Assembly (NCBI GenBank): GCA_000310025.1
Contig: FN649746.1
Span: 2,262,095 to 2,305,722 of the forward strand
Origin: Ectocarpus siliculosus
Lineage: Eukaryota > Sar > Phaeophyceae > Ectocarpales > Ectocarpaceae
Direction of reading: 5' to 3'
Length of the DNA: 43,628 nt
Part shown: positions 33,672-43,628 of the stretch, piece by piece
How the letters are laid out: each line of letters begins with the position of its first letter
Numbering within the stretch: position 1 is the first letter of the stretch
Position numbers and translations under genes: made by a program
The notes under the pieces: generated by a model
The model's input: only the letters and a program-made list of their open reading frames with translations
What the model was told of the DNA's origin: nothing
Databases searched by the model: none

Positions 33672-36600
33672 CTACCCAGCGGTACTCTCGGGCGTCTTAC
33701 AGTCTTCCTGCTGTCCTCGGATCGCCTCCATTCCAGCCATGATCTGCTTGCCGTTGACGTCACGCGTCGGAATGAACGTCTCGCCAAGAATGCCTTTGGC
33801 ACTGCGACTGACCTGGGCGTGACAGTTCACCGGACGGCCGGGGAGTAATTGTGAAGGTGCTTCTTACAGCCTACAAGCATCTACCTGCAACGTCTTCTTT
33901 CAACCCCACACAATGCTTCATCCCTCTACACATAGCTATAGCTACCTGCTCACCTTTGGATGCCAGATGGTACTGAGTGTTGAATGCTACCCGACTCATA
34001 CCTCATTGTGGTCAACGGCCATGTTCATCTGCCAGGTAAGGTGATCGGGGAGATCGTACTTGTCCGTAGGGTCACGCATGGCGATCTGGTGAAGCCTGCC
34101 GTGGCTCAGGCGGACCGTAGCCTTGGGAGTCACTATCTGGAAGGAGGCGTGCTCGGACTGGTGAGTGAATACGCCACCTTCTTCAACCTCGGCGCGAGCC
34201 ACGTATTCGATGCATTCGTCCATGTTGGTGGCGGTGGGGTCCTTGAGAGAAATACGTGGGCGCAAGGGAAAAGGACGAAAGAACCGTCATATGTAACGAG
34301 ACCAGCCATGAACTTCATATAGGGGTACCGAAGCCTCTACATTCTTGCTGATCGAAGCTTTCGTGAAACACGATGTTGTAAGCTTGGTGTCTCCACCACC
34401 AGCAACTGCGCTTGTCGGCGGAAAAAAATCGGAAATTCTTACCCCGAGGATCCATTCGCCCATGCCCATCGTCGTGCTCAGGCGGCGACCGTGGCGGGCG
34501 TTCTCGAGTCTCTTGCGCTCCCAGTACTGTGAGGTGGTCAGCATGTCCGGACATTCCGCGGAATGCGCGAATATACGGCTCAGGGAGACCGATTGAATTG
34601 GTTGCCTACACTCAGTTTTCGAACCAAATCTACCCCAAAAGTATCACACGCCGAGTGTCAGCGAGGCAAGGGAAAGCAGGGCTGGAGACCATAGACGAAT
34701 ACATCGGTGTGATACGGCGAAAGGTGAGAAGGTCAAACACATTATCCGCGAACCTTTTCGAAGCCGAACGAGCGGCAGGCTCCAGGAAGGTTAGCCGCCG
34801 AGACTTGCACGTCTTGGCCGAGGGAAACCGTCCCGGGGGCGAGCAGATCCTCTTCACCGTCGAGAAACACGCTCAGCGAGCCATCCGCGAGGCATGGGAA
34901 CAGTCTGGCGGGGCAAGAGCTGTCGAGGTTGTGGGGTTCCCTAACTTCGATTACCACTGAATGGTGAACGCCATTCTCGTCGGTGGCGAGGATAGACAGA
35001 CCTGTTCGGGTCAACGAGAAAGGCAATGAAGAATATTCGGACGTGGATGGCACGCACGGCCAAGGAGTTGGAACGTTGCCCCTGTTTCCTCGACCATTTC
35101 AGCTTGGTCCTAGACACGGGAGATGGCACTCAATCGCTTTGTTCTTGGTGTGTGTTTGCCGTACTCCTTCCGATTGGGATGGGGTTCATTTACCGAAGAA
35201 GCGCGTATCAGCGCGTCGTGAGGCACATGAAATAATTAGAGATATATATGGCTGTCGCCATACCGGTGATGTACGTGATCTCGGGTAGGTCGGGGACGGG
35301 CGACGTGACCCGCATGTTGATGTGCATGATGTCGTCGGCAATGAGCGAGTACCACGCCCCGTCCTCTCCGGTGAAGTCGAACTTCTGCCCAGAAAAGCCA
35401 AACATGTGAGGATCGCCTGGGGAGTGATCAAGAAAGCGTTGGTTGGCATTGATCGCAATAGAAGGCGCAATAATCATAGAAGAACGCTTCCGGTGGGGTT
35501 TCTGCCAGATTCAAACAAGCGAGTCCCCGAAACGCGCCCAGTACCCCGGACAGTCCCCATGCGCGGCTACAATAATTGAGTTCCACCACTATTCCGAATC
35601 GCTCACATCGAGATTTCGTATTCGTGCTCAAGACGTACTAAATACGTGGCAGTCCCATGCATGCGGGTTCGTCGCCAGGACGACGTGTGTCAAAATGACT
35701 CCGGGGCGGCGCGAGGCGGCAAAAAGAGCGCAGCTCACACTTTTCCGTGAAACCCCGGCGATGTGACACTCTGCGAGCCTCCAACGCGCGGACGCCAACA
35801 GCGTACGAGAGCACTCTTCAGGTTTTGATTCTGCTCGGTCTGGCCATCTTTCGTTGATGGGGACCATATCAGCACCAACAATCATCAGTGCGCTACTATC
35901 CCTCCGGAAACGACTCGTGTACTTCTTCTTCGCTGCGAGTCAGGTAGTCAGGCCGCACACAAGGACTTACGTTACCAGACAACGAGAAGAAACAATACAG
36001 CTCGTGGGATGTTTAGAAACTACTGTAGGTCAGAGCAACTTCGAGAGGCAGTCAGCATCTCACCGCAGGCCGTCGGATTGTAGAGGAACTCGTCGTCGCG
36101 ATCCACGCAAACAAGCCTATCGTCACAGCAAACCTGGTCTGTCTCGCAGTCGCTGTTGTCGTTGTTTGGATCACACGTCACCGGCACCGCTTCAAAGGGA
36201 GGTAGAACGGCGGGTGACGTCGGAGAGAACCTTAAAACGGAATTACATCCTTTGAGAGAAAGTCGACCATCTGCAGAAATATGTTGGTTCAGGCCCAATT
36301 CAACCCAAGCCTGACGGAACTTTGGTGATGCGTGAAAGGGGCACTGTGCCCGTATTTGAAGTTCGACGCGATGCCGTTTGCCTGAGTGCGCCTTGTGGGG
36401 AGATGATCCCGACGAGATAGTGCACGGCCAAGATTGATTGATCAAAACGATCAAGAGAAGCCAACCAGATTCAGATTGCCTGGATCGTTCCTCTCACCAC
36501 AGGTGTATCCTACGGGCCCAGGGGCGCATTGCAGTTCTTGTTCGCTGCACGGGTTGGAGAAGTCCCCGAATTCACACCCTGCCGGCGTTCCGCGACACAC

Positions 36601-39600
36601 ACGCAAAGGATAGCTAGTCTCTCTCATGTTTTGGTTTATGACGGCCAGATTCCGTCAGGCTATTTCGACTACATCATGTCGACTTCATATAGACTATGCA
36701 ATCGTTGAATGTTCCAAGTACTATCCTGGAAGCCAGCTTCACAATTTCTGCAAGGACCTCCAATATCCCTTGTCAGCACCACGCAGTGGATGCCGTACTT
36801 GCTTTCAACTCTTCTCCAATGCGACTCCCATGGAAGGTGGGCTTTGGTACGTTTGGCGTTAGTACCGAGCGAGTTTCCCCGAAAAACAACTTCATAGCCG
36901 ATTGAAATGTAGAACAGGGCTCTGAAGTTTCAGTCGTAGAATACAGGTAGGGCCATGGAAAAGGGATTCTCATTTGTTGAATACAGCCGCACCCCAACGC
37001 TGGTTTGCCCGCCGAACTATCCAACAAATACCGAGAGCAACTGACGTGTACACACTGCAGCAACAACCGACTGTAGTACTCGATTTTCACTGCTATACTG
37101 CCCCGCTCGCCGAGCATTCACTGCGCCGCTCATCGAGCAGAGCAATTGCAGGATGCTGAACGAACAAGCACACAGACGAAACACCCAAGACACCAACCAA
37201 GTACGCGAATCGTCGCTTGCTGCACGACGACAGTGATGCGCCCAGCCCACAGCGAGGCCTCAACCGAACGTCTGAACACCGGCAAGCTGCTTGTATAAAG
37301 GGGTCTGTACTACATGTAAGCGTTTACGCCGCTCCAGCTACTCTGCCACTCACCACATTCCGTGCCGATTTCGTCGTCAACTTGAACATAGCTGCCATGA
37401 TGTACAGGTTGCGGAAGTTGGACTTAGCGAGAAAGTATCAGATCAGTCACGGCGCAACTTCTTGGGCTGCTAATGCATGGGAGAGGCCTTCCGTTTAACT
37501 TTTGTGAGGCTCTGACTCACGGGCCAGGCGCGGCATCATGCCCGCGGCAAATCGGAGCTGCAGATAACCATGTCTTTGCATGTGAACCGTGAGGAGCTGA
37601 GTACGCTACACAAGGGCATCAATATATGTTTCAAGGTCTTATCCGTTTTTGACCATACTCAACAATGCTCGTCGGAAAGACCTAAAACAGTTCCTCACGT
37701 ATTGGTTGATGGCAAGGCCGGCAGGCACTCCAGGTCCGTGTTGTCGTGCAGCCATCTGAGAATCAGCCAACCAAGAATGCAGTTTGCCGGCGAACGAACA
37801 GGGAATCAACCAGCACAGACGACAACGTTAGCAAGCCTTCCTCAAGACGGATTGACAGGTGCACCTTCCATTAAAGAGCTGCCGTATCCCTTGACCACGG
37901 AAACGGCGCCAAAGTTAGGAGGATGATCCTCCATAGCAGTAGTAGTACTTTTCTCGCCTGTAGTATCAGGGCCGCTCGACAAAATGTGATTGCCTTGTAC
38001 ACGAATCTAGAATGACCAGAAGGTCACCCTACGCGCCCTGATCTATCACTAGACGGCTACGTCCAATTGTCACACGTCAGCTGGCGAACAAGAGGAACCC
38101 AGCAGGCAACTCATCGCTATTCCGATGGCGAGTGGAAACCCGTTCGTGCAACCATCTGTCATTGCCGATGGAGTTTCCAGATATCAAAGGGTTCGGAGTG
38201 CACCAGATGACCTGCTACTGCTATAGCAATAGGTCCAGCCCATCCAATTAGCATGATAAAGCGAAACAAACCCATATCAACCACTCTCTCGAAGAGATCT
38301 GCGGGGAAGGGACTTACAGAGTGTCCAGGGCCTCGAGAGATTCGAATATCCCGGCGGGCAGCGTCGTCAAAGAGTTGGAATTAATGTACCTTTCAAATCG
38401 TCAGGGGGATCACGCAAGTCGACGAGGTGTTATAGGAATCCAGGTTTCAAGCGACACTTGGAGTTTCATCTCGGCCATGAAGGGTACACTATTAGCTCGG
38501 TGGTGCCGATAGCCGAAGATGAAGGTGTCGGTGAGTGGAAGTACTCAGGTCTTGGATGAATGCACCATCCGATCTGCTTATACAGTTAGATACACAAACA
38601 AACGTACGTGTAGTCTTACACCCAGCAGTCACGATGAAATATAAATAGTTTATTCGTACAACAGCGATGAGGAAGGGGTTTCGTCGTCACAATCCTATGA
38701 ATGAGTCAGACACATTTAGGTACTCTGCCGGCCACCCATCGACACAATTCCTACTATCTTTTACAAACGAACGGGCGCGGGAGTTATCGTGCAACCTCCT
38801 GAATGGTCTGGTCGGCGGGTGCAGTGCAGCAAAAAACAGTGATACCCATCGCAATGCCGGCGCCAATTCACATCGGCACCAAAATCCCAGCAACGGCGAC
38901 ATGTTGTTTATGATACTCACAGATAGTTCAGGTCTGGGAGAGAATCGAATATTCCCGCAGGAAGCATCATCAAATCGTTATCGCGAAGCTCCCTGTGAGT
39001 TGTTGGAAGCGGGACACACGGCGTCCGAAAGAACAGGTATGTCATCTACTTTGACAGTTGCATCTCAATCGTGAAATGGCACGTTCGCTTTTGAATGTCG
39101 ATAACCCAACATCTAAGTTGTCTGTGGACTTAGGCAGTTTCTGACCAATGTACCATTCGACCTGCGTAGGTCCCCAATGTAGAAAATGAAGTCAGAGCAC
39201 CAACTGATTTCACAGTCACCGACAACGCAGGCGATAGGACAGGTTCATTCTTGACGAGTCCGGAAGCAGGCAAAGGCATCAGTGTAGGGTACCAACTAAA
39301 CTCGTGTTATCGTGGTGAGGGTGTCATTCAAATTGCCGTCGTTCATAACTTCCGCCCGCGATTCGGCCATCAATCCCGTTTGATTCCATATCTGCGGCTC
39401 CACGGCAATGACACTTACAGGGTTCTCATGGCAGGCAGAGAATCGAAAATCCCAGCAGGCAGCGTCGTCAGGTCGTTGTAGCCCAGATTTCTGCAGGTTC
39501 GTTGGGAGGGCAAGAGAGACGTCTAGAAGGGAAGACGGCGAAGGAGCAAGTATCATCAGCGTCTGATACTGCATATTGGTTGCGTTGGTTGCTATAGCTT

Positions 39601-40208
39601 GGGAGGCTAGATCGTCGCAAGTGAATTGCTGTAGTGGATTCACGCAACATGTGACAGCATAATTTACAGCCGATTTGCTTCCATACATACTGCATGTAGC
39701 ATCGTTGTCACCGCTTCGTTTTCCATAATATGCTCACTCTACAGCAGTGTTAGGGATTCGGGTCATTCCCAACGGTTTAGCAAGCAAGTCAAGCACATGT
39801 ACGGGACCCCTGGGCCATCCGTCCCCACTGAAGTAGAGGACTACGGGGTCAATCAATTCGCCTAAATGGATGCATCAACTCAGCACGTCCATTCGTCACG
39901 ATACCCATCGAGGTTCATTGGGATAACGGGAAAGCCCGAGCTGCGGTGGTGAAAGCGCGTATAGCCCACGCGAGAAAGCTGACAATGTTCGGGTGAACTC
40001 CCGACAACGCATCCGCGCTGAGTAGTGACAACTTTCACGCACGTACCAAAATGTTCAACCACTCGGTGCTGCCGTTCGTCACGATCTAGCAGCCAAGTAT
40101 CATGCGTTCTTCGGCATGCAGCTGAATGATGCTCACATGTAGATCAGCCGGTTGACGGAATCGAGCATCCCGGCAGGCAACGTCGCCAGCTCGTTGTTAG
40201 ACAGGTCG
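33672..40208 (-). CDS. LRR / Cys-rich / root-cap domain protein, 5' partial
   Basis: Eleven phase-consistent exons (464 aa in the window). Four LRR exons, each exactly 72 nt and phase 2 to 2: 40208-40137, 39490-39419, 38992-38921, 38389-38318, with units such as NLGYNDLTTLPAGIFDSLPA. Then 36613-36498 (CRGTPAGCEFGDFSNPC...LQCAPG) and 36189-36064 (CDPNNDNSDCETDQVCCDD), two Cys-rich exons. Then 35416-35264, 35001-34754, 34526-34443, 34241-34002 and 33812-33672 (stop TAG). These last five begin GDPHMFGFSGQKFDFTGEDG and carry HINMRV, CPARLFPCLADGSL, CRSFGFEKYWERKR and SAKGILGETFIP, matching the layout of the plant root-cap/late-embryogenesis domain (PF06830): a GDPH-x-G-x-DG start and a GxLGxTYxP-like end. 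No membrane helix or kinase is present; paired Cys suggest an extracellular protein. Start and signal peptide were not found and should lie upstream, perhaps beyond the copia element. The role is unknown; a cell-surface recognition or wall function is inference. Confidence 0.85.
37354..37557 (-). pseudogene. Unplaced splice-bounded fragments, possible LRR exon relics
   Basis: Between the last LRR exon (38318) and the first Cys-rich exon (36613) two minus-strand pieces have AG and GT borders but do not fit the reading phase. 37557-37521 (37 nt) reads LRFAAGMMPRLA, like a cut-down LRR unit (LPAGMFDSL). 37422-37354 (69 nt) reads SNFRNLYIMAAMF. In the phase required by the flanking exons the first has an in-frame stop, so neither is in the gene model. 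They may be decayed LRR copies or chance. Confidence 0.35.
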
Positions 40209-40829
40209 CTGTGCGTTTGTCGGGAGGATGACATAGGTCAAGAGGGGGAAGACTAAATAAGTGCCACCCGCTTCTGCTACTGCAGTGAGGTCATGAATAT
40301 GATCGATAATTCGGGTGGCTCAGTTGTGTGTGATGGGAGCGTAGAGCAGCTCGGCCATGACGGGCCGCACGGGTAGGTAAAGACGTGTAGACGTGGTGAA
40401 AAACGTGTTGTATTCATCGGGGGCGTGCTTGAGCTCGTCATTCCATCACGGCATCAAGTCACGCATAACGCTTTAATACCCAGAACGAATCTCCATGAAT
40501 CTCCACCAATCTACTACACTCCCAAGGAAAACACAAAGAAACTTCTTGTCCCTCCGTAGTTCGTCACTGCAATCCCCGCATATGTATACGCAATATACCA
40601 CCCCCATGCTATGCTACGAGTATATCGAATAGCCCCCCTGCTCGTATGCATCGTCATGCTCCAACAAAATATCAAAGTCATCCTTATCATACCAGTTCAT
40701 CCCAAAACAAATCAAAACCAAGACAAAATCGAAAACTCCAACACCAAAACAATACCTCCAAAAACAATCAATCGCATACCAACTCTTCCAAATCATCAAG
40801 AAAAATCCCGAACATTAACCTTCCAAAAC
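40209..40829. other. Flank between LRR exon and copia element; probably holds the element's 3' LTR
   Basis: No coding exon was found. The part nearest 40208 resembles the introns next to other LRR exons (see findings). The part from about 40450 to 40829 is AT-richer and probably LTR sequence, but the inner edge of the LTR cannot be fixed because the other LTR is outside the window. Confidence 0.4.
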
Positions 40830-43628
40830 ACTACCATCTCCACTTGACCCTCTCTATCTCTTGTTCAAACTCGTACATATCCTCTCTCTTCCACTCAACG
40901 GCAAAGCACGATTTGATCCCAAAACACCTCTGTCACTGCAAATTCATCACAAAGTCTCTGTGCAACGCAAAAGATTCCTTGCTGATAGCCTTCGTCAAGA
41001 AATCTGCATGCTGAAACTCCGACGCCACATGAGTAATCGAAATCTCCTTCCTCTCTACCAGTTCCCTGATAAAGTGATGCCGTACATCAATGTGCTTCGA
41101 GTTTGAGTTCGTGATCGGGTTGTGCGCAATCTGAATCGCTCCCTGATTATCCTCGAAGATTTGAATGCACGGCATACCTGCATCTGGCAACATAAAACGC
41201 CAAACTTGCCTCAAGAAAAGCACCTCCTTCAAGACGTCGGCAATTGCCACATACTCTGCTTCCGTTGTGGAAAGCGTAACGCACTTCTGCGTCCTCGAAA
41301 ACCAAGTCACACACCCACCCCCACACATCACTAGTCCTCCTGAAACCGACCTACGGTCTGCTGCCTTGCTCGCATAGTCAGCATCCACAAACACCTGCAT
41401 GCTCATGCCAGTCACCACACCCCTCTCAAATGTAATCCCCATCCAACTCGTCCTACGCACGTACCCTAAAATACCAAGTGCTGCCTTCCAGTGCACCATC
41501 TTGGGAGACGCGCAATACCGCGCTACTGCTCGTACTGCATTCGCGATGTCCGGCCTGGTTTGAGTGGCCAACCACATCAGGGATCCTACCAACTCGCGGA
41601 AAGGGACATCAGCACACGCTTCGTCCTCGTCAAAGTCGGTGAGCTTCATGCTCACAGGCAAGGGCACACTCTTCCCCCACTCTACGCCGTACTCTGCAGC
41701 CAACTCTTCTGCAAACCTTTGCTGCGAGATCCTCAAAAGGCCTCTCTCTAGATCTCTCTGGTAAAAGCACGCGGAGTACCACCTCAACTCCCCAAGGTTC
41801 TTCACGGGGACCATCTCGTTGAGGTCTCTGCCAAACTTGTCACATCTCTCCTTCTGCCCTACGGCAAAAATGTCATCCACGTGGACCACGATGATCATGA
41901 TCACACATCCATCCTCCATAAATCGAAAAACACATGCATCCGCCAAACATTGTACAAATCCTAAAAGTAACAAACACCTCGTCAGGTGCGCATGCCATTG
42001 TCGTGACGCCTGCTTCAAACCGTACAGACTCTTGCATAGCTTCACGATCAGTCCAGATAACCTACCACAACCTTGCGGGAGACGCATGAAAACATCCTCT
42101 TCAAGCTCAGACTGCACAAACGCCTGCTGAATATCGAAATGACACAAGTCAAGGTTCTGCTCACATGCCAAAGCTGCCAACAAACGCACACTAGACACGG
42201 ATACGGTGGGTGCAAACAATTCTCCAAAATCAATCGAAGCCCTCTGCATGTCCCCCCGCGCTACAAGTCTTGCCTTGAATTTCGTCGGCCATCCGTACTC
42301 GTCTGCCTTACAGTTGAATACCCACTTGGCGTTGATGGAGTTTTCTACTGGTTGCTACACCGGACTAAAAGTACCTGCATCCAACAGACCGAAAAACTCC
42401 CGACCGACTGCATCATCCCACAACTCTGAATGTTGAGACCGCATGGCCTCCTTGAACGTTTTCGGCACGCGGAGGTCGCTGGCGAGGCAGTGAGGGAGGT
42501 CCGGCATCTTGTCAGGAGGGCGCTTGCCACGAAGAGTGGCTTCCACGTCCTCGCGGGTGGCGAACATTGCTGCGAACATGTGCAGGCCCCCCGGCCCTCC
42601 AGCTCCTGCGGCCCCCCCGCTCCCATGGCCTGCTAAACTCGTATCTTGCGGCGGTGGGGGGGCGGGAGGGGCGATGCTGGCGGACGGTGGCAGGTCTCGA
42701 CGTCCTTGATCGACGGCCTCCCGGGTGGCGAGCGACGAGACGAGCGCATCCTTGCCCATCATCGACAGCAGCCCAAGGCGGTGTTGGAGAGCGGTGCCGC
42801 CACCTGACGGCGACGGCGGTTGCTGTTGCTCATCCATGAAGCGCACTCGGTCGCCGCGCGTACGGCCATGCACTCTGGTTTCCTTCTCGCCCAATTCTCT
42901 GACCGCTCGCTGTGAAAGCGGCGGGTGAGCGGGAGCGGCGGCGCTTGCGGGCGGGGGTGTCGGCGGTGGACGGGGCGGCGTGGCTGCGGTGGACGGCGGT
43001 GCCACTCGAAGACGCCGTGGAGATCGGCGACGCGGCTCCGGACCCTGTGAAGATCGACGGAGAAGTGGGCGGCGGCGAAGCGGTGGTCGCTGTGGGCGGG
43101 GTGTAGGTGTACGTCCGCGATGCCCATGGCGGTGGCGGTGCGGCAGCGGCTGCAGGAACGGCGGCGGCCGGCGAGGGCGCCGCGGTGACCGAAGAGCCCC
43201 CCCCGCTGGCCGGTACCGGCGCCGGCACGGCGGTGCGGCGGTTGATCCACACGACGTTGTTGGACAGGCAGATCCTTCCGGTGTCGGCGCGGAGAACGAC
43301 GGCAGTGGCGGCGGAGTGGTTGCGCGCTCCGTGCATGTAGAAGCAACGCACGGATTGGACGTCCGCCTTGCTGGCGCGCTTCACGCGCATCATCCCCTCC
43401 TGGAAAAAAGGGACGACGTTGAGCGGCGGTTTACGTCCGAAGAAGGCCTCGAACGGCGACATCCAGGCCGGGTTGGCCGACGTCGCGGAACGGTTGAAGC
43501 AGCCGGAGGCCCAGATCGCCGATGCAAGCCACAGCCGGTGTCCGTTGGCGTCCATACCGGGGATAGAGGCGAGGTCGACGTGGCCCATGGAGAGGACGTG
43601 GCGACGGGCGGCGTGGCCCCCCTTCATA
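40830..43628 (-). mobile_element. Ty1/copia LTR retrotransposon, 5' part outside the window
   Basis: The minus strand carries the copia order integrase, reverse transcriptase, RNase H. After the stop at 40933 there are purine-rich stretches (GGAAGAGAGAGGATATG, and GTGGAGATGGTAG just before TGTTTTGG at 40830), which suit a polypurine tract followed by an LTR starting with TG. That LTR start is a guess. The 5' LTR, gag and most of integrase lie beyond 43628, so target duplication cannot be seen. Confidence 0.85.
40933..43627 (-). pseudogene. Ty1/copia pol, interrupted by an in-frame stop and a frame change
   Basis: From 43627 the frame encodes the C-terminal integrase region (FNRSATSANPAWMSPFEAFF, GRKPPLNVVPFF) and then an Ala/Pro/Ser linker, ending at 42830. 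The continuing protein lies in another frame, open from at least 43005, with RAVRELGEKETRVHGRTRGD and later PKTFKEAMRSQHSELWDDAV at the start of the RT domain. That frame meets a TAG at 42355-42357, then continues in the same frame with NAKWVFNCKADE and FKARLVARGD, AFVQSELEEDVFMRLPQG, YGLKQASRQWH and the catalytic VVHVDDIFAV. RNase H follows with FVDADYA, STTEAEYVA, FEDNQGA, DVRHHFIRE and ADFLTKA. The two breaks suggest a dead copy, unless the frame change is a sequencing error in GC-rich DNA. Confidence 0.92.

What the first reader, a model, noticed from the sequence alone, without database searches (positions are those of the whole stretch)
38318..40208. Four single-LRR exons, each exactly 72 nt and phase 2-2, set in related introns
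Exon borders 40208-40137, 39490-39419, 38992-38921 and 38389-38318 all give 72 nt and the same phase, so any number can be added or lost without breaking the frame. Intron sequence also looks duplicated: TCGGCCATGA and GGGAAGAC-type segments recur at similar places, and AATGxACCATxCGAxCTGC occurs near both 38560 and 39150. One-LRR-per-exon genes with exon shuffling are known from Ectocarpus ROCO-type LRR GTPases; here the same trick is seen in a different, secreted-type architecture. This is the best candidate for a little-described system.
Basis: partly seen in the sequence, partly recalled or inferred. Interest (0 to 1): 0.85.

Follow-up and report, generated by a model that had tools for sequence, protein, structure and literature searches.

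The report
Secreted receptor-like gene of interchangeable repeats
In a brown alga, a gene for a probably secreted repeat protein is assembled from small, equal-sized exon pieces that can be added or lost without breaking the protein, a known trick in algal immune-type genes that is seen here in a different, secreted gene family.

Summary
The four exons are real: each exactly 72 nt, phase 2-2, GT-AG bordered, one leucine-rich repeat. They are the 3' end of a 12-unit gene (copy A); its other eight units lie outside the window behind a ~14.5-kb insert with a Copia-type frame. Tandem copy B also has 12 units. Introns are related between many units (62 of 210 pairs, 10 of them orthologous A-B pairs; 0 of 4,410 shuffled), but the three introns inside the cited span hardly resemble each other. 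Relatives elsewhere in the genome add N-cap, C-cap and Cys modules, and two start with a signal peptide. I found 95 such exons in 14 of 17 examined stretches. Two recently duplicated loci carry 12 and 5 units, so whole-LRR gain or loss is supported. Between A and B, framework codons are constrained while binding-face codons change at about the intron rate. No ROC/COR domain was found nearby. 72-bp phase-2 LRR exons are published for brown-algal ROCO genes, with non-ROCO cases mentioned (PMC11378527). Verdict: a real secreted-type variant of a known kind; splicing, expression and immune role are untested.

The parts
40137..40208 (-). LRR exon 9 of gene copy A, 72 nt, phase 2-2 (DLSNNELATLPAGMLDSVNRLIY)
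   Evidence: B9 82% identical
39419..39490 (-). LRR exon 10, 72 nt, phase 2-2 (NLGYNDLTTLPAGIFDSLPAMRT)
   Evidence: B10 90%
38921..38992 (-). LRR exon 11, 72 nt, phase 2-2 (ELRDNDLMMLPAGIFDSLPDLNY)
   Evidence: B11 92%
38318..38389 (-). LRR exon 12, 72 nt, phase 2-2 (YINSNSLTTLPAGIFESLEALDT)
   Evidence: B12 96%
37699..37755 (-). C-terminal LRR cap exon, 57 nt, phase 2-2 (WLHDNTDLECLPALPSTN), AG/GT borders; borders read by eye
   Evidence: sequence, alignment with copy B; similar cap-like exons after the arrays of C99, C475, C15 and C33
36496..36603 (-). Cys module exon (RVCRGTPAGCEFGDFSNPCSEQELQCAPGPVGYTCG); span of the protein match
   Evidence: the same module follows the arrays at C99, C475, C15 and C33
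36065..36190 (-). second Cys-rich open stretch; its joining to the LRR gene is inferred
   Evidence: translation; no like stretch with a good score at the other array loci
35238..35483 (-). GDPH...FDFTGE domain, conserved in copy B; may be the C-terminus of this gene or a neighbouring gene
   Evidence: no Pfam match
34745..35056 (-). second piece of the GDPH-type domain
   Evidence: no Pfam match
40298..43628 (.). start of a ~14.5-kb insert in intron 8 of copy A, running out of the window to about C21:2316858-2316922
   Evidence: homology to copy B stops at 40297 and homology to the gene's units resumes at 54765-54829 in window numbering
40933..42354 (-). reverse transcriptase frame (RVT_2, the Copia type by recall) inside the insert
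   Evidence: 473-aa frame; E 3.6e-39

Best explanation
The four exons are LRR units 9-12 of a 12-unit gene in a brown-algal family of probably secreted LRR proteins: signal peptide, short Cys exon, N-cap 'CGITDxD..DL..CL', n LRRs, C-cap 'N.xLxCL', Cys module. The repeating unit of evolution is one 72-nt phase-2 exon plus its intron (mostly 0.24-0.8 kb). Shown by sequence: units share intron homology, recently duplicated loci differ in unit number, every possible exon-to-exon join keeps a hydrophobic junction residue, and framework codons are constrained between the tandem copies. Inferred: unequal crossing-over or gene conversion between the homologous introns adds, deletes and swaps whole LRRs; selection keeps the framework while binding-face codons are free to diversify; and the protein works outside the cell as a recognition or matrix-binding factor, possibly in defence. 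Copy A is also split by a ~14.5-kb insert in one intron and may be impaired; copy B has no such large insert.
For: Exon structure. Twelve units in each tandem copy; unit i of A is most like unit i of B for 11 of 12 units, narrowly so for units 3-5. Intron homology: 62 of 210 intron pairs at E<=1e-4, of which 10 are orthologous A-B pairs and 52 are between different units, against 0 of 4,410 shuffled comparisons; units match with a one-unit shift over up to 1,213 columns at 73.5%. Family: 95 exons of 72 nt in 14 of 17 examined stretches, 0 in five shuffles, 9,025 of 9,025 joins hydrophobic. N-cap and Cys modules around arrays; signal-peptide-like first exon in C15 and C33. Unit number: 12 versus 5, flanks 93.9% over 683 and 93.4% over 1,835 positions, introns grouping by locus (support 94/95, 93% of bootstrap trees). 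Constraint between A and B over 10 exon pairs, 230 codons: dN 0.106, dS 0.224, ratio 0.47 (bootstrap 0.30-0.77); framework dN 0.040 and dS 0.195; binding face dN 0.185 and dS 0.108; intron divergence 0.194; framework versus face, Fisher p 0.001 on rounded counts. C15 array, 10 of its 12 units: diversity of the first 15 exon bases 0.350 against 0.083 in introns, reached by 0 of 387 intron windows; exon middle 0.049.
Against: No RNA evidence. The window gene's own first exon was not found, so its secretion rests on relatives. Unit 1 of both copies lacks an AG acceptor, and that of B also lacks the GT; it is probably a dead exon. Unit 8 has no clear ortholog (A8-B8 0.81, A8-B10 0.82, A8-B3 0.81). 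Between units, binding-face pN exceeds pS in 5 of 9 array sets only (C15, C99, C475, C21A units 2-8, C21B); not in C33, the two C16 arrays or the four window units; these sets are not all independent. In C33 (4 of 5 units) 33 of 384 intron windows reach the exon-start diversity. The 15-base stretch was chosen after I had seen the C15 exons. Between A and B the binding face changes at about the intron rate, so positive selection is not shown there. The sequence match to solved LRRs includes intracellular SHOC-2, so the repeat type alone does not prove secretion.
Confidence: 0.8

Rival explanations
1. Copy A is a decaying pseudogene: the insert in intron 8 has split it, and the four exons in the window are relics of a gene whose working copy is B.
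For: About 14.5 kb of foreign sequence between units 8 and 9; RVT_2 frame inside it; intron divergence between A and B is already about 19%, so there was time for decay.
Against: The four window exons and units 2-8 of A keep open frames and AG/GT borders; cap and Cys exons are still alike in A and B. The A-B constraint cannot be assigned to one copy.
Confidence: 0.4
2. The LRR exons belong to a ROCO (LRR-ROC-COR) gene whose GTPase part was missed.
For: Brown-algal ROCO LRR exons are also 72 bp and phase 2 (PMC11378527). Long-model searches of this genome may miss weak matches.
Against: The only Roc match on C21 is about 1.7 Mb away and there is no COR-A match on C21. The array is followed by cap and Cys exons.
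Confidence: 0.03
3. Static ancient exon symmetry, as in glycoprotein hormone receptors: equal exons from an old duplication series, with no present turnover at this locus.
For: 11 of 12 units of A and B are still best matched in the same order; introns within the window are hardly alike any more.
Against: Other arrays of the family are young: introns differ between units by 8% on average in C15 and 4% in C33, and their unit number differs, 12 versus 5.
Confidence: 0.2

Closest known systems
Brown-algal ROCO GTPases with shuffling LRR exons (Teng 2024, PMC11378527: passages and section 11 seen; Zambounis 2012: not held, known only as cited there and by recall)
   Same: One LRR per exon, 72 bp, phase 2; variable unit number; variable sites on the concave face.
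   Different: No ROC/COR found at this locus; cap and Cys exons around the array, with a signal-peptide-like start in relatives.
Non-ROCO 'shuffling LRR' sequences of Saccharina japonica (15 sequences, one passage of PMC11378527)
   Same: 72-bp LRR exons outside ROCO genes; probably the same broad class.
   Different: That passage says most hold only LRR motifs and could be a reservoir; here the genes have conserved end modules. No sequence comparison was possible.
Tetrahymena LRR genes with 90-bp phase-2 exon arrays (PMC6564038, passages seen)
   Same: Exact-length LRR exons, one phase, variable number, duplicated exon-intron units.
   Different: 90 bp instead of 72; a ciliate; tens of thousands of such exons.
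Variable lymphocyte receptors of jawless fish, LGR and Toll-like ectodomains
   Same: Among the solved structures nearest by LRR sequence, with LRRTM, SHOC-2 and designed LRR proteins.
   Different: No evidence here of somatic assembly or cassette copying.

Membership tests
ROCO (LRR-ROC-COR) genes | ROC and COR domains in the same gene | tested here: not met
   Roc: 67 matches in the genome, the only one on C21 at 576518, about 1.7 Mb away; COR-A: 1 match, on C17, beside which no 72-nt LRR exon was found in 18 kb. Searches with long models may miss weak matches in this genome.
ROCO (LRR-ROC-COR) genes | 72-bp, phase-2, one-LRR exons | tested here: met
   definition read
Non-ROCO 72-bp shuffling LRR genes of brown algae | several 72-bp LRR exons without ROC/COR | tested here: met
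Non-ROCO 72-bp shuffling LRR genes of brown algae | sequence kinship to the 15 S. japonica genes | not testable with these tools
   no other brown-algal genome is held and the paper's supplements could not be opened
Secreted LRR proteins | signal peptide and no membrane or kinase part | tested here: inconclusive
   MEAFMVLLPAFCALSGASA start by eye in C15 and C33; the window gene's first exon and its true C-terminus were not found
Alternatively spliced or somatically assembled receptors (VLR-like) | different unit combinations in transcripts or cells | not testable with these tools
   no RNA or single-cell data

The most novel reading that the evidence does not exclude
The genome holds a dispersed reservoir of mutually compatible 72-nt LRR cassettes (each of 9,025 possible joins of the 95 found keeps frame and a hydrophobic junction) for secreted receptors whose unit number and order change by recombination in introns, and perhaps by exon skipping within an individual: a VLR-like repertoire of soluble recognition proteins in a brown alga.
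Probability: 0.12. Interest if true: 0.88.

Novelty: new variant of a known kind. Interest (0 to 1): 0.46.

Why it matters
It extends brown-algal LRR exon turnover from ROCO GTPases to probably secreted proteins with fixed end modules. The recently duplicated C15 and C33 loci make the rate and mechanism of exon-unit gain and loss directly measurable. If transcripts mix the units, it would bear on the open question of whether brown algae have a diversified immune repertoire.

Tried and rejected
Unit 8 as a swapped-in unit in copy A: first suggested, then weakened (the A8 exon is about equally close to B3, B8 and B10; its upstream 230 nt are closest to B5, B9 and B10 at 0.74 and only 0.53 to B8), so I leave it open. 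A simple LTR element as the insert: a self-comparison of 40100-55400 showed no long terminal repeats, so the insert is composite or decayed. ROCO comparison: the single COR-A match (C17) lies in a frame that looks to me, by eye and recall, like a mitochondrial calcium uniporter; no LRR exon array was found in 18 kb there, so exchange of units between ROCO genes and this family could not be tested. Pfam on the C-terminal pieces: no match above a cut-off (weak hits PF07740 at E 0.087 and PF00423 at E 0.19 not used; the LRR query also hit PF01081, an aldolase model, just over its cut-off, which I take as spurious). Segments C3:341000 and C456:292000 gave no 72-nt LRR exon, although C3 has weak N-cap-like and Cys-like matches. 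A first diversity profile put non-homologous sequence behind the last unit of each array into the intron average (C15 intron 0.136, exon start 0.345, highest of 372 intron windows 0.306; C33 exon start 0.107, intron 0.173); one search leaves those last units out. Ectocarpus microRNA and LRR targets: the listing of 8 papers gave nothing that I followed.

Searches behind the novelty statement: (listings), and passages of four papers (PMC11378527, PMC6564038, PMC8307928, PMC3879662). Zambounis 2012 is not held.

Full report
What was checked. The four exons exist as described: each 72 nt, minus strand, AG before and GT after, one base completing the previous codon and two bases opening the next, one LRR each. 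The alignment of 22 such exons of the two C21 copies has the consensus xLxxNxLTTLPAGIFDSLxALTx with N5, L10 and P11 invariant. In 292,137 bases of examined sequence, both strands, the scan finds 95 exons of exactly 72 nt and none in five mononucleotide shuffles. When all lengths from 60 to 87 were allowed (without the C17 stretch), 95 candidates were 72 nt and 30 had other lengths; one shuffle gave none.

The gene is larger than the finding. Reading on into the same contig (C21) showed eight more units of copy A at C21:2321383-2317009 (window numbering 59289-54915) and a second tandem copy B with twelve units at C21:2353618-2346883. From just upstream of unit 9 down to window 32339, copies A and B match over 8,217 columns at 83%, and in blocks upstream. 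In a DNA search of the 189-Mb genome with copy B's array, 5 of 95 matches are the two copies and the other 90 all cover one dispersed repeat in intron 7 of copy B; 40 of 114 candidates were scored, so this is no proof that further copies are absent. Between units 8 and 9 of copy A lies about 14.5 kb of insert, beginning at window 40298 and holding an RVT_2 frame. Of 24 units, 22 have both AG and GT; unit 1 of A lacks the AG and unit 1 of B lacks both.

Introns. In A and B together, 62 of 210 intron pairs are similar at E<=1e-4 (10 orthologous A-B pairs, 52 pairs of different units) and none of 4,410 shuffled comparisons is (the insert-bearing intron 8 of copy A was left out, and 20 nt at each intron end were cut off). 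Homology is strongest among introns 2, 3, 4, 7, 8 and 9. Inside the cited span it is weak: the stretch upstream of exon 9 against intron 9 is reached by 1 of 200 shuffles, introns 10 and 11 by 6 of 200, the upstream stretch against intron 12 by 8 of 200, and the other seven pairs by 38 to 171 of 200.

The family. Protein searches of the genome led to arrays at C15:5219581 (12 units), C99 (8), C475 (7), C16:6769187 (7), C47 (7), C33:4143320 (5), C16:7965153 (5), C15:1589626 (4), C55 (4), C12 (4), C33:3580416 (4), C16:6728477 (3) and C15:1610267 (3), besides 22 exons on C21: 14 of the 17 stretches examined, nearly all chosen because a search had pointed to them. Some arrays may run beyond the stretch fetched. 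The N-cap exon precedes the array at C475, C15:5219 and C33:4145 (E 3e-7 to 8e-6) and has weak matches at C16:6766, C15:1588, C99 and C3 (E 0.008 to 0.044). The Cys module follows at C99, C475, C15 and C33 (E 4e-10 to 4e-6). C15 and C33 begin with MEAFMVLLPAFCALSGASA, by eye a signal peptide, spliced to a short Cys exon. I take the genome for a brown alga because of its EsV_1_7 repeats (150 matches, 150 of 880 candidates scored, 0 of 14 control genomes; that this domain marks brown algae is recalled). The species is not known to me.

How units change. C15 and C33 are recent duplicates: flanks 93.9% over 683 and 93.4% over 1,835 positions, yet 12 and 5 units. In a tree of 15 of their 17 units' introns (the last unit of each array left out) the units group by locus, with support 94/95, in 93% of bootstrap trees; 2 of 500 label shuffles cluster as well. 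That is what unit turnover after the locus duplication predicts. Each of 9,025 possible joins of the 95 exons gives a hydrophobic junction residue, so order and number are free in principle.

Selection. Between A and B, ten exon pairs (units 2-7 and 9-12; unit 1 left out as dead, unit 8 as ambiguous) give dN 0.106 and dS 0.224 (ratio 0.47, bootstrap 0.30-0.77). I set framework codons (2, 5, 7, 10, 11, 13, 15, 18, 21) and binding-face codons (1, 3, 4, 6, 8, 9) from the general LRR consensus, by recall, and tried no other split. Framework dN is 0.040 and face dN 0.185, against intron divergence 0.194. So the framework is conserved and the face changes at about the intron rate. In the young C15 array (10 of 12 units; the last and one with a longer intron left out) the first 15 exon bases are four times as diverse as introns (0.350 against 0.083; 0 of 387 intron windows reach it) and the exon middle is less diverse than introns (0.049); I chose the 15-base stretch after seeing these exons. 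Results against a general rule: in C33 (4 of 5 units) 33 of 384 intron windows reach the exon-start value (0.122), and between units binding-face pN exceeds pS in only 5 of 9 array sets.

What it is not. No ROC or COR-A match is near. The COR-A match on C17 is in a gene without LRR exons in the 18 kb read. The GDPH...FDFTGE stretch at 35483-34745 has many relatives in the genome (99 matches) but none listed at the other array loci, so it may be a neighbouring gene rather than the C-terminus of this one.

Known and new. 72-bp, phase-2 LRR exons with concave-face selection and alternative splicing are published for brown-algal ROCO genes, and 15 non-ROCO sequences are mentioned for S. japonica (PMC11378527; passages; section 11). 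Tetrahymena has 90-bp phase-2 LRR exon arrays (PMC6564038; passages). In five searches of the held library, of which I saw the listings and passages of four papers, I saw no description of this secreted architecture, of intron homology between units at such loci in brown algae, or of the 12-versus-5 contrast. The library lacks most subscription papers and the 2012 Ectocarpus paper, so this is a weak statement of novelty.

Noticed in passing
C21:2349306-2349478 (copy B intron 7; window numbering 87212-87384; L005:3584-3756): A short dispersed repeat (about 170 nt, at least 90 further matches in the genome, several as neighbouring opposite-strand pairs) ends about 15 nt before the acceptor of unit 8 in copy B.
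   Followed up: partly
window 34745-35483: GDPHxFGFSGQKFDFTGE-type domain, a large family in this genome (99 matches, some in open frames of 300-556 aa), with no Pfam match.
   Followed up: partly
window 36690-36932: About 240 nt nearly identical between copies A and B, far more alike than the surroundings (83% overall); perhaps recent conversion or a shared insertion.
   Followed up: no
G000 C16:2359313-2360836: LRR matches within one uninterrupted 575-aa frame, perhaps an intron-less relative.
   Followed up: no
window 40933-43380: RVT_2 frame and an upstream open frame separated by one stop, with no long terminal repeats found by self-comparison; looks decayed.
   Followed up: partly
G000 C15:5219581-5225081: Units with identical exon protein recur (one type three times, two types twice), suggesting multi-unit duplications within a young array.
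   Followed up: partly
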